From: Streptomyces sp. NBC_00271
GTDB lineage: Bacteria; Actinomycetota; Actinomycetes; Streptomycetales; Streptomycetaceae
Direction of reading: 5' to 3'
Length of the DNA stretch: 64,000 nt
Assembly (NCBI RefSeq): GCF_036178845.1
Contig: NZ_CP108070.1
Coordinates: forward strand, 11,718,001 to 11,782,000
In this document: piece by piece, positions 37,035 through 40,605 of the stretch
How the letters are laid out: every line of letters begins with the position of its first letter
Numbering within the stretch: position 1 is the first letter of the stretch
Notes under the pieces: model-generated
What the model was told of the DNA's origin: nothing
Seen by the model: the letters and a program-made list of their open reading frames with translations, nothing else
Databases searched by the model: none
Translations under genes and position numbers: made by a program

Positions 37035-37066
37035 CTCCTCCCCGTCCTGAAGGACGGGGCTTCTCG

Positions 37067-37276
37067 CTATGCCGGGTTGGCGTTGCGACGGGCCAGCCCG
37101 GCCCGTAGAACGTTGGTGGCTGCCACTGTGTCGGCGTGCGCGTGGTGGCCGCAGGCGACGCAGTGGAATTTCTCCTGTGTGGGCCGGTTCTCCTTCGCGG
37201 TGTGCCCGCATGCGGGGCAGGTGCGGGAGGTGTTGCGGGGGTCCACGGCGATCACTTCCCGTCCGGCGCTTTCAGC
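37067..37276 (-). pseudogene. tnpB: tnpB 3' segment (residues 336-404 of the restored protein)
   Basis: This encodes AESAGREVIAVDPRNTSRTC to the end: the zinc finger (CPACGH, CVACGH) and the last RuvC Asp (HADTVAATNVLRAG). It is cut from its 5' part at 37276/37277 by the IS110-family element. Joined at the CT core to the segment at 39110-40114 it restores a continuous 404-residue TnpB. Confidence 0.92.
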
Positions 37277-37499
37277 CTAATTCCCGTGTAACCAGCTCAC
37301 CGGCCCTCGCCGGTCGGTGAGGTGGTTCGAACGGGTTGTGACGCTTGCACCCCGCCGGGCCGCAGGTCTGCGACGAGCACGGCTGCGCAACCCAGCTGGC
37401 GGGTGGTGGTCTCGTGAGTGCCGGTGGATACCTCTCAACGTCACGGCCAAGATGCCTTCCCAGAGAGCGGCGCCATCCGGTGCTCTCGTGGCCGCCACC

Positions 37500-37830
37500 C
37501 ACCCAGCACTGACGCTGCTGGCGGTTGTGTGGGCTCCGGACGCACGCCTTCTTTCAGCCCGGCCATCATGTCTCCGCCAAGATCGGCGGCGTTCGGCGCC
37601 TTCACGGCCACCAGCGGCGTCAACACTGTTTGCTTGATCACTCGTTGGAGTTGGTGGTGCGAGCCCGTCGCACGGTGATCTCTTGCATTCCCCGAGCCGT
37701 CTGAGCTCTGGGAACAGACCGGGGCCCGTGCGGTGAGCTGGTGCCACGAACGGCTTGTGAGGTGTCGGCCCGTTCCTTGATCGAGGCCTGGAATTAGGTC
37801 GCTGCGTGGCCCCGCATGCGCTCGTGACCA
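37500..37830 (+). ncRNA. Candidate bridge RNA in the IS110 left end
   Basis: Four matches lie in the order known for IS110 bridge RNAs. Left target guide: CTTTCAGCC at 37551-37559 equals the target at 37269-37277. Right target guide: CGCCAAG at 37575-37581 is the complement of the target CTTGGCG at 39110-39116. Left donor guide: GTGAGGTGTC at 37757-37766 equals the element right end at 39101-39110. Right donor guide: GGAATTAG at 37790-37797 is the complement of the element left end CTAATTCC at 37277-37284. The matches are seen directly. RNA ends and fold are inferred. Confidence 0.85.
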
Positions 37831-37861
37831 GCGCAAACACCCGCACTTCGAGGAGGGAAAG

Positions 37862-39088
37862 TTGATCTACTGCGGCATCGACTGGGCCGAGAAGACGCAC
37901 GACGTCGCCCTGGTCGACGACGACGGCACGCTCCTGGCCAAGCGCCACATCACAGACGACGCGACCGGCTACAAGATCCTGCTGGATCTGCTCGCCGAGC
38001 ACGGCGACACCGAGGACAACCCGATCCCGGTCGCCATCGAGACCTCCCGCGGTCTGCTCGTCGCGGTCCTGCGCACCGGGAAGCGCCAGGTCTACGCCAT
38101 CAACCCGATGGCCGCCGCACGCTACCGCGACCGCCACGCGGTCACACGGAAGAAGTCCGACCCCGGCGACGCCCTCGTCCTGGCGAACATCCTCCGCACC
38201 GATATGCACGCCCACCGGCCATTGCCCCAGGACAGCGATCTCGCCCGCGCCATCGCCGTCCTCGCCCGCGCCCAGCAGGACGCCGTTTGGAACCGGCAGC
38301 AGCTCGCCAACCAGCTCCGCTCGCTCCTGCGCGAGTACTTCCCCGCCGCCCTCGACGCCTACCTGCACTGGCAGAACGGTCTCTGCCGCCCTGAGACCCG
38401 CGTCCTGCTGGAACTCGCCCCCACGCCCTCGCGGGCGGCCCGGCTGTCGCTCGCGCAACTGCGCTCGGCGCTCAAGCGCGCCGGCCGCCAGCGCCGGATC
38501 GATGCCGACGCCGAGCGCATCCGCGAGGTCCTGCGGGCCGAATACGCGCACCAGCCGCTACTGGTCGAGGACGCGCTCGGCAAGCAGATGCTCGCTCTGC
38601 TGCGGCAGCTCGAAGCCGCCTGCACGGCCGCCGACCAGCTCGCCGAGGCGGTTGAAGAGGTTTTCCCTCAGCATCCGGACGCCGAGATCATCCTGAGCCT
38701 CCCCGGGCTCGGCACCCAGCTCGGCGCCCGGATCCTCGCTGAGATCGGGGACGACCACGCCCGCTTCGCCACTGCCCGCGGAATGAAGGCCTACGCCGGT
38801 GCGTCCCCCATCACCAGGGCGTCCGGCAAGAAGTCCAGCATCACCAGACGCTGGGTGAAGAACGACCGGCTCAACCACACCGGCTACCTGTGGGCCTTCG
38901 CCTCACTGACCCACTCACCGGGCGCAAAGGCCCACTACGACCGCCGCCGCGAGGCCGGGGACTGGCACGCCGCCGCTCAGAGAAACCTCTTCAACAAGAT
39001 GATCGGCCAGCTCTACCACTGCCTCCAGAAGCACATCCTGTTCGACGAGAACCTCGCCTTCCCCACACAACTTCTCGAAGCTGCTTGA
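37862..39088 (+). CDS. IS110-family DEDD recombinase
   Basis: A 408-residue recombinase of the IS110 group. The N-terminal RuvC-like domain shows GIDWAEKTHDV (first Asp), IETSRG (Glu) and RKKSDPGDALVLA (Asp pair). A coiled-coil middle section follows, then the C-terminal Tnp domain with SLPGLGTQLGARILAEIGD and YAGASPITRASGKKS holding the catalytic Ser. The gene is complete. It starts with TTG at 37862 behind GAGGAGGG. It stops 21 bases before the right core, so the bridge RNA must come from the left end. The element appears intact. Confidence 0.93.
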   Translation: MIYCGIDWAEKTHDVALVDDDGTLLAKRHITDDATGYKILLDLLAEHGDTEDNPIPVAIETSRGLLVAVLRTGKRQVYAINPMAAARYRDRHAVTRKKSDPGDALVLANILRTDMHAHRPLPQDSDLARAIAVLARAQQDAVWNRQQLANQLRSLLREYFPAALDAYLHWQNGLCRPETRVLLELAPTPSRAARLSLAQLRSALKRAGRQRRIDADAERIREVLRAEYAHQPLLVEDALGKQMLALLRQLEAACTAADQLAEAVEEVFPQHPDAEIILSLPGLGTQLGARILAEIGDDHARFATARGMKAYAGASPITRASGKKSSITRRWVKNDRLNHTGYLWAFASLTHSPGAKAHYDRRREAGDWHAAAQRNLFNKMIGQLYHCLQKHILFDENLAFPTQLLEAA

Positions 39089-39109
39089 CGACTTAGCTCC
39101 GTGAGGTGT

Positions 39110-40114
39110 CTTGGCGTGCAGGATCGTCAGGAACACCCCCCATCCGGCATCGTTGATCGACGTGTTGAGCCCGGCCTTCGCGGCGGCCCCGTTGGGCAGG
39201 AAGGTGCCCGGCCGGCCGGGGTCGGGCTTCGGTGCGGGGGCCCTGCTCATGTTGCGGATCTTGAGGTCTTCGTGCGCGATGACGTCATGTGCGCGGACCA
39301 GACCGAGCGCGGTCTTGTGTGCGTGGTCGAGCCGCTGGCGGCGCACCTTGCCGTGGAGCCGGGCGACCTTCTCCACCGCGCGCTGGTGGTTGGCGGTGCG
39401 GTCCTTCGCCTTGCGGCGCGGGAACCGGGACAGTTCCTGCTGCGCTGCCTGGAGCTTCTGGGCTGCTCGGCGGCCGTGGCGCGGGTTGGGCACGAACCCG
39501 CCGTTCGAGTCGGCGAGGAAGTTCGCGATGCCCAGGTCGATGCCGACCACGCTGCCGGTCGCGGGCAGCGGTTCGGGCTGGTCCTGCTCGGTGGTGAGCA
39601 CGACGAACCACTTACGGCCCTCCCGCTTGACCGACACGGTCTTGACCCGCCCGGCCACGGCGCGGTGCTGGTGGACCCTGACGTGGCCGACGCCCTGGAA
39701 GCGGACGCGGGTAACGGGGTCGTGCGGGGTGGAGTCCCACCGGCAGCCGTCCCCGTCCTTGGGGAACTCCACCGTGTCGAACCAGGTCACCCCGCGGAAA
39801 CGCGGATAGCCGGGCGTCTCACCGGACTTGACCCGGCGGAAAAACGCCTGCATCGCCTTGTCGAGGCGGCGCAAGGTGGCCTGCTGGGAGGAGAACGACC
39901 AGCGGCCCTGACGCTCCGGGTCGAACGCCCGGATGTCCTTGAGCTGCGCGGACTGCATCCCGTATCTGACGCTCGTCTTCGAGACATGCCGGTAGGCGTC
40001 ACGGCGTTCCTGCAACGCCCCGTTGTAGAGGGAGCAGTGATCCCGCAGCATCTCGGACAGCGCCTGACCCTGCCGGACGGTGGGCCGCATGAGGAACTTG
40101 TACGCACGTATCAC
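39110..40114 (-). pseudogene. tnpB: tnpB 5' segment (residues 1-335), split by IS110
   Basis: This encodes MIRAYKFLMRPTVRQ through GWGVFLTILHAK: the N-terminal wedge/REC-like part, the first RuvC Asp in VGIDLGIANF and the Glu in AHEDLKIRNM. Beyond K335 the frame continues into the IS110 right end as unrelated residues. It lacks the zinc finger and last RuvC Asp, which are at 37067-37276. Without excision no complete TnpB can be made. Confidence 0.92.
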
Positions 40115-40175: not shown

Positions 40176-40605
40176 ATGTCATCACGCTGGGAACCAGATC
40201 CCGATATCCGTCGGGGAAACCAGGTCATCCACAACCTCCATGCACACTTGGTGGTTCGTCACCAAGTACCGGCGTGAGATCTCCAACAGCGAGATGCTGA
40301 CGCGCTGCGAGACGATCACGCGGGACGTGTGCGAGAGCTTCGGCGCACAGCTGCGGGAGTTCAACGGCGAAGGCGACCACGTCCACCTGCTCGTCCACTA
40401 CCCGCCGAAAATCGCCCTGTCCAAACTCGTCAACTCCCTCAAGGGCGTCAGCTCCCGCTACCTGCGCGCGGAGTACACCGGCCGGATGAACCGAATCGGC
40501 ACGGGCTCGGTGTTCTGGTCCCCGTCCTACTTCGCGGGCTCCTGCGGCGGCGCACCACTGAGCATCGTCAAGGACTACATCGACAGCCAGAAGCGGCCAG
40601 CCTGA
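40176..40605 (+). pseudogene. tnpA: IS200-type TnpA (Y1 HUH transposase), frameshifted
   Basis: The protein starts MSSRWEPDPDIRRGNQVIHNLHAHLV in one frame and continues FVTKYRREISNSEMLTRCE to the end in another. One extra G near 40248-40252 separates them. The HUH motif is GDHVHLLVHY, and the catalytic Tyr is in VKDYIDSQ. At about 142 residues it is otherwise full length. The element cannot mobilise itself unless the frameshift is an assembly error. tnpB diverges from it. Confidence 0.85.

What the first reader, a model, noticed from the sequence alone, without database searches (positions are those of the whole stretch)
37277..39111. Bridge-RNA logic of an IS110-family element can be read directly from one insertion
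The insertion site in tnpB gives the target (CTTTCAGC-CT-TGGCG) and both element ends. The non-coding left end contains, in order, CTTTCAGCC (37551-37559, same as left target), CGCCAAG (37575-37581, complement of right target with core), GTGAGGTGTC (37757-37766, same as the right end with core C) and GGAATTAG (37790-37797, complement of the left end with core). This is the target-loop then donor-loop order and strand sense described for IS621-type bridge RNAs. Nine-, seven-, ten- and eight-base matches in correct order and sense are very unlikely by chance. The recombinase is intact, so a 583-base left end with a CT core may define a useful, longer bridge-RNA subtype.
Basis: partly seen in the sequence, partly recalled or inferred. 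Interest (0 to 1): 0.92.

Follow-up and report, generated by a model that had tools for sequence, protein, structure and literature searches.

The report
Jumping gene with multiple target guides
A bacterial jumping gene appears to encode several separate RNA address labels in a row, and identical copies of it sit at different addresses that each match a different label, whereas the relatives described so far carry one.

Summary
The reading missed the main point. A copy 100% identical elsewhere in the host genome sits at an unrelated site (GTCAACATC-CT-CTGGG) that the reported loop does not fit (8/16). A second target loop 116 nt upstream (37435-37465) fits it 14/16. The LE is long because target-binding loops stand in tandem before one donor-binding loop. 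Of 80 non-redundant element/site pairs, 64 match a guide pair in their own LE at 13/16 or better (2.2% in swapped controls), at discrete registers about 100 nt apart. Related LEs score one to four loops, LE length tracks loop number (r=0.85), and the hairpins covary. In seven of 16 tabulated genomes, copies 99.9-100% identical occupy two kinds of site, each fitted by a different loop. So this clade of Streptomyces IS110 elements carries arrayed, naturally multi-target bridge RNAs. No such report turned up in the open-access papers searched. Transcription, processing and activity of each loop are inferred. 16 of 80 pairs did not reach 13/16.

The parts
37277..39111 (+). IS110-group element, counted with both CT copies (core at 37277-37278 and 39110-39111)
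   Evidence: Flank join restores one tnpB frame; three identical copies of 1835 bp in the host genome
37290..37327 (+). 5' stem-loop of the RNA
   Evidence: Minimum-energy fold of the LE; inferred role from IS621
37333..37393 (+). Hairpin 1: weak, probably degenerate target loop (CACCCCGCC 37348-37356, CGACGAG 37372-37378)
   Evidence: Loop score 17, control maximum 11.6; guides differ among near relatives; no insertion site found for it
37395..37507 (+). Hairpin 2: target loop with left guide TCAACGTCA (37435-37443) and right guide CCCAGAG (37459-37465), for IS110-type transposase genes
   Evidence: Score 35; fits sites of L001 14/16, L034 15/16, L111 15/16; fold
37510..37622 (+).
   Evidence: 16/16 to the window's own site; score 36; fold
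37636..37756 (+). Conserved target-loop-like hairpin before the donor loop; role unknown (in the fold it runs on into the left donor guide, to 37766)
   Evidence: Weak loop hit at LE index 408, score 15; fold
37757..37797 (+). Donor loop: left donor guide GTGAGGTGTC (37757-37766) and right donor guide GGAATTAG (37790-37797)
   Evidence: Exact matches to the right end and to the complement of the left end. The minimum-energy fold does not show it as an open loop
37862..39088 (+). IS110 recombinase, 408 aa, TTG start
   Evidence: Pfam DEDD_Tnp_IS110 and Transposase_20; family profile matches IS621 and ISCro4 structures
39089..39111 (+). Right end, ending GTGAGGTGT-CT
37269..37276 (+). Left target CTTTCAGC in tnpB
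39112..39116 (+). Right target TGGCG in tnpB

Best explanation
An IS110-group insertion sequence whose left end encodes an arrayed bridge RNA: a 5' stem-loop, a series of target-binding hairpins of about 100-115 nt each with its own left and right target guide, then a single donor-binding loop that reads the element's own joined ends. Any one target loop can bring a recombinase dimer to its own site while the single donor loop holds the element circle, so one element can insert at, and probably leave from, several unrelated sites. In this element hairpin 3 addresses a conserved stretch of tnpB and hairpin 2 a conserved stretch near the 3' end of IS110-type transposase genes; hairpin 1 looks degenerate. 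Shown by sequence: the loops, their fit to insertion sites, the use of different loops by identical copies, hairpin covariation, and change of loop number between relatives. Inferred: that the array is transcribed (in IS621 from a promoter across the joined ends), whether it stays whole or is cut into units, and that each loop works today.
For: Second site of identical copies fits a second loop. 64 of 80 non-redundant element/site pairs reach 13/16 against 138 of 6284 swapped pairs; 57 of 80 against 47 of 6284 at 14/16; of the 64, 33, 20, 7 and 2 fall in four registers and 2 elsewhere. Seven genomes hold copies 99.9-100% identical at two kinds of site; each site scores 14-16/16 on one loop and 7-11/16 on every other loop of its array. 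Loop number against LE length r=0.85 over 140 LEs. Covariation: 99 double-change cells against a shuffle mean of 26 (non-first loops) and 77 against 19 (first loops). In IS621 the target and donor loops in one synapse come from two RNA molecules (PMC11208158, passages), so several target loops can share one donor loop.
Against: No RNA or activity data. 16 of 80 pairs stay below 13/16; 7 of these have a loosely called right end, 9 do not (L107, L157, L162, L164, L171, L178, L189, L192, L199). Of 16 tabulated multi-copy genomes, nine do not show two loops in use, and in G101 no loop fits either copy. No site was found for hairpin 1 of this element. Of 16 more distant loci only 5 had both ends called and 1 of these 5 reached 13/16. 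Consensus structures were derived from the same alignments in which pairs were counted.
Confidence: 0.85

Rival explanations
1. One working target loop; the other hairpins are relics of tandem duplication left behind as the element changed its target.
For: Hairpin 1 of the window element looks degenerate and differs among near relatives. In S. caatingaensis, MNU76 and NBC_01446 all tabulated copies use the same loop although more loops are present.
Against: In seven genomes copies 99.9-100% identical sit at sites of two different loops, so both loops served the same element version recently. The sites of L001, L111 and L034 have flanks only 52-81% alike over 300 bp, so they are separate events.
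Confidence: 0.08
2. The array is a multi-target array, but works as separate processed RNAs: each hairpin is cut out as a target RNA that acts in trans with one donor-loop RNA.
For: For ISEc11 a 70-100-nt seekRNA with the target regions was sufficient, and the authors expect processing of a longer RNA (PMC11187229, Discussion read). Up to four target loops share one donor loop.
Against: No transcript data; fixed order and one strand fit a single RNA equally well. This changes the form of the RNA, not the multi-target conclusion, and overlaps with the best explanation.
Confidence: 0.4
3. Second sites are off-target insertions or passive spread by recombination, and the fit to other loops is chance.
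For: Bridge recombinases tolerate some mismatches; some sites fit only the left guide (L101, L143, L157, L178).
Against: Second sites fit another loop at 14-16/16, while 47 of 6284 swapped pairs (0.75%) reach 14/16; boundaries are exact at CT and flanks are unrelated.
Confidence: 0.03

Closest known systems
IS621 bridge RNA and recombinase (Durrant 2024 PMC11208160, outline, passages and section 6 seen; Hiraizumi 2024 PMC11208158, passages seen)
   Same: Recombinase family, CT core, left-end location, 5' stem-loop, target loop then donor loop, guide sense and length (8-9 nt on the 5' side, 4-7 nt on the 3' side)
   Different: IS621 has one target loop in a 177-nt RNA; here one to four target loops score in LEs of about 340-710 nt
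seekRNA of IS1111 and IS110 elements (Siddiquee 2024 PMC11187229, passages and Discussion seen)
   Same: Noncoding end yields an RNA that selects the target; upstream noncoding region in the IS110 type
   Different: One target specificity per element is described
TIGR-Tas stem-loop arrays (PMC12045711, passages seen)
   Same: Tandem hairpins, each with two short guides for the two DNA strands; the paper relates Tas proteins to IS110
   Different: Tas systems have arrays without a donor loop and a different protein; the paper describes IS110 bridge RNAs as a single two-stem unit

Membership tests
IS110 group, IS110 family | DEDD recombinase with C-terminal Tnp domain and catalytic serine | tested here: met
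   Pfam domains above cut-off; D7, D100, D103 and S321 invariant in an 11-row alignment; serine aligns with the ESG serine of IS621. The glutamate was not settled by the alignment
IS110 group, IS110 family | Long noncoding left end, short right end | tested here: met
   583 nt against 23 nt including the core
IS621-type bridge RNA | Target guides fit the two flanks and donor guides fit the two ends, in order and sense | tested here: met
   family-wide 64 of 80 pairs for the target guides. Donor guides were used to call ends, so they were not tested independently
IS621-type bridge RNA | Guides in internal loops of conserved hairpins | tested here: met
   Target hairpins: covariation in 47 and 35 rows. 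Donor hairpin not tested
IS621-type bridge RNA | Exactly one target loop and one donor loop | tested here: not met
   Two well-formed target loops and a weak third in this element; 93 of 140 LEs score two or more. One donor loop
IS621-type bridge RNA | Transcribed and bound by the recombinase | not testable with these tools
   No RNA or binding data
TIGR-Tas array | Array next to a Nop-domain Tas protein, without a donor loop | tested here: not met
   The protein is an IS110 recombinase and a donor loop matches the ends

The most novel reading that the evidence does not exclude
Natural guide arrays exist in transposons: the array is cut into single-loop target RNAs that share one donor-loop RNA in trans, and loops are gained and lost in one-unit steps (perhaps also exchanged), as in CRISPR or TIGR arrays, letting one element parasitise several unlike mobile genes. 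This would be a living link between single-unit IS110 bridge RNAs and TIGR stem-loop arrays.
Probability: 0.35. Interest if true: 0.94.

Novelty: new variant of a known kind. Interest (0 to 1): 0.86.

Why it matters
Bridge RNAs are described as one target loop plus one donor loop. Arrays of up to four target loops would mean that one IS110 locus can address several sites, which gives a natural template for multiplexed bridge recombination, explains why identical IS110 copies sit at unrelated sites, and makes it testable how new target guides arise and whether IS110 RNAs and TIGR arrays share an arrayed ancestor.

Tried and rejected
Rfam at gathering thresholds: no match in the window. A first automatic end-finder gave wrong ends for many loci and stopped with an error; replaced by end motifs. 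A covariance model from a sequence-only alignment of 30 loops was misregistered (3 pairs) and missed first loops; replaced by a 27-column score trained on 37 site-matched loops and by class-wise alignment. Controls for the score: maximum 8.8 over base-shuffled LEs and 11.6 over 140 dinucleotide-type shuffles. Hits nearer than 280 nt to the LE 3' end (a conserved hairpin and the donor loop) were left out of loop counts. The score is blind to the L180-L186 subfamily, where guides fit sites at 14-16/16 but no loop scores. phmmer of the single protein found no PDB chain; a family profile did. Counting the three host copies as three events was rejected: L002 and the window copy have identical 300-bp flanks and mirror positions, as expected of the two ends of a linear chromosome. 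Exact empty copies of the tnpB target in the host genome: none with fewer than two mismatches. Loop swapping: 26 loop pairs at 14/16 or better are shared between LE clusters, but nearly all stand at the same place counted from the 5' end, so this shows descent and not exchange. Of 16 LE pairs aligned, only L044/L048 differ by one clean gap of one unit (103 nt); L063/L095 and L065/L095 have a 100-nt gap plus smaller ones, L046/L096 and L051/L071 single gaps of 51 and 70 nt, the rest several gaps. Loci L004-L030 (own genome) were not scored for sites; L200-L215 were read by eye and run through the end-finder.

Full report
Check of the observation. All four strings are at the stated places and in the stated sense, and the flanks joined at CT read as one TnpB frame. 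The protein has both IS110 Pfam domains. A profile of 11 rows (7 of this family, 4 more distant ones from the host genome) matches IS621 (8wt6, E 5.9e-26), ISCro4 (9t56, E 1.2e-24) and 9mty (E 3.6e-7).

A contradiction. The host genome has three copies identical over 1835 bp. Two sit in tnpB with identical 300-bp flanks at mirror positions, probably one insertion present at both chromosome ends. The third, L001, sits at GTCAACATC-CT-CTGGG, where the reported loop scores 8/16. L111 (98.0% identical) and L034 (91%) sit at GTCAACGTC-CT-CTGGG; in L111 and L034 an IS110-type transposase frame runs through the joined site, in L001 only a short stretch around it is alike. Flanks of the three are 52-81% alike over 300 bp, so I take them as separate events.

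The second loop. Upstream of the reported loop lies a related hairpin with TCAACGTCA (37435-37443) and CCCAGAG (37459-37465) in the same arrangement. It fits these sites at 14 (L001), 15 (L034) and 15 (L111) of 16. The LE aligns to itself over about 120 nt around the two loops, and each folds as a hairpin of 113 nt (37395-37507, 37510-37622). The whole LE folds better than 100 of 100 shuffles, z -6.6. The same fold does not show the donor loop in open form.

Relatives. Sources: the best 80 of 165 relatives in genome contigs; 29 new loci from 392 genomes of the genus, 102 with a match at E 1e-100; 60 further stretches from that search. With the three host copies that makes 172 loci; some named and unnamed loci may be the same place. 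Both ends were called in 116 and a site scored in 115. Merging LEs at 88% identity gave 65 clusters and 80 distinct element/site pairs. Best fit of the site to any guide pair in the LE outside the donor region: 13/16 or better in 64 of 80, against 138 of 6284 when sites are swapped between clusters; 14/16 or better in 57 of 80 against 47 of 6284. The 64 lie 285-335 nt (33), 380-432 nt (20), 490-530 nt (7) and 610-640 nt (2) from the LE 3' end, and at 468 and 374 (one each). The 16 misses: 7 with loosely called right ends (L046, L058, L077, L085, L088, L139, L167), 9 with clear ends (L107, L157, L162, L164, L171, L178, L189, L192, L199); I cannot explain the latter as a group.

Number of loops. 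At a score cut-off of 15, above the control maximum of 11.6, 0, 1, 2, 3 and 4 loops were found in 15, 32, 52, 38 and 3 of 140 LEs (not de-duplicated), median length 430, 416, 477, 583 and 704, r=0.85. The zero class includes L180-L186, where guides fit sites at 14-16/16, so the score misses that subfamily. On a recombinase tree of 103 rows with at least one loop (27, 44, 29 and 3 with one to four), loop number changes at least 28 times; shuffled mean 48.3, as low in 0 of 200. L044 and L048 differ by one 103-nt gap, one unit; most other aligned pairs differ by several gaps. Further afield, loci from 394 genomes of the class, 13 with a match, gave 16 new loci: both ends were called in 5, and 1 of these 5 reached 13/16 (scores 12, 10, 11, 10, 13). 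By eye, L205, L212 and L214 (58% identical, one genome, LE 354 nt) show one such hairpin; I did not establish the ancestral number.

Same element, two sites. I tabulated 16 genomes with two or more scored copies; the list is not exhaustive (L119 and L140 of G254, for example, were left out). Seven hold copies 99.9-100% identical whose sites fit different loops: own genome (L001; L002 and L003), S. acidiscabies (L034; L035 and L036), Streptomyces sp. NBC_01481 (L051, L052), G284 (L141, L142), G244 (L181, L182, both 16/16), G058 (L184, L186) and G390 (L137, L147). Scored against each loop (loop places of G284 and of the G244 and G058 pairs set by hand), each site gets 14-16/16 on one loop and 7-11/16 on the others. 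These are not seven independent arrays: own and S. acidiscabies are 91% identical, G244 and G058 share one guide pair, NBC_01481 and G284 have LEs 79% identical with alike first loops. The other nine: in S. caatingaensis, MNU76 and NBC_01446 all copies fit one loop (13-16/16); in G318, G149, G255 and G090 copies fit the same place in short LEs (335-401 nt; 12-15/16); in G351 one copy fits (14) and one does not (10); in G101 neither does (10, 11).

Structure. Loops aligned by class and folded give a long stem, an internal loop with the left guide on its 5' side and the right guide on its 3' side, and a GGC/GCC tip, the plan of the IS621 target loop. Non-first loops: 47 rows (of 59), 21 pairs, 93% paired, 99 double-change cells against a mean of 26 and maximum of 44 in 500 shuffles. 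First loops: 35 rows (of 44), 25 pairs, 88%, 77 against 19 (maximum 39). Sliding the partner by 1-3 columns leaves 29-49% paired. The structures come from these same alignments, which favours them.

Mechanism. In IS621 the target loop and donor loop of one synapse come from two RNA molecules (PMC11208158, passages); for ISEc11 a 70-100-nt target RNA was enough, and the right surrounding target was needed for excision (PMC11187229, Discussion). So several target loops could share one donor loop with no change to the enzyme, and an extra loop should let an element leave as well as enter a second kind of site. In IS621 the circle rebuilds a promoter across the joined ends (PMC11208160, passages); I assume the same here. 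Transcription, processing and activity of each loop are not shown.

Literature. Searches (held open-access library, no bioRxiv) listed no paper that by title or abstract start reports more than one target loop in a bridge RNA. In the main text of Durrant 2024 the terms tandem, array, multiple target, two target, additional loop and several target do not occur. The TIGR-Tas paper calls IS110 bridge RNAs a single two-stem unit (passages). Two more papers were searched for passages without bearing on this. Most subscription papers and preprints were not seen, so priority is not established.

Noticed in passing
37636-37756; same place in many relatives: A hairpin shaped like a target loop stands just before the donor loop, with guide-like stretches alike across many relatives (often GATACGCCC and CGCATAG). 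Not a variable loop; role unknown.
   Followed up: no
Downstream of the recombinase in L046, L070, L073, L096, L105, L133 and in L047, L083, L125, L139, L208: Left end and recombinase present but no right-end motif nearby; instead stretches alike between genomes follow, perhaps passenger genes with the right end further on.
   Followed up: no
Insertion sites of the window element, L001, L034, L111, L181, L184: Sites lie in other mobile genes: tnpB and, for L034 and L111 by frame and for L181 and L184 by eye, IS110-type transposase genes.
   Followed up: partly
37040-40114 (-) and 40240-40605 (+): The interrupted tnpB lies beside a small ORF that looks like an IS200/IS605 TnpA (recalled from sequence, not searched), so the target is itself a mobile element.
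   Followed up: no
L101, L143, L157, L178: The left guide fits the site fully (9/9) while the right guide does not; perhaps hybrid flanks after recombination between copies, or later change of the guide.
   Followed up: no
G000:C1:175027-176250 and G000:C1:11755862-11757085: The window copy and L002 are mirror copies with identical flanks, as expected of terminal inverted repeats of a linear chromosome.
   Followed up: partly
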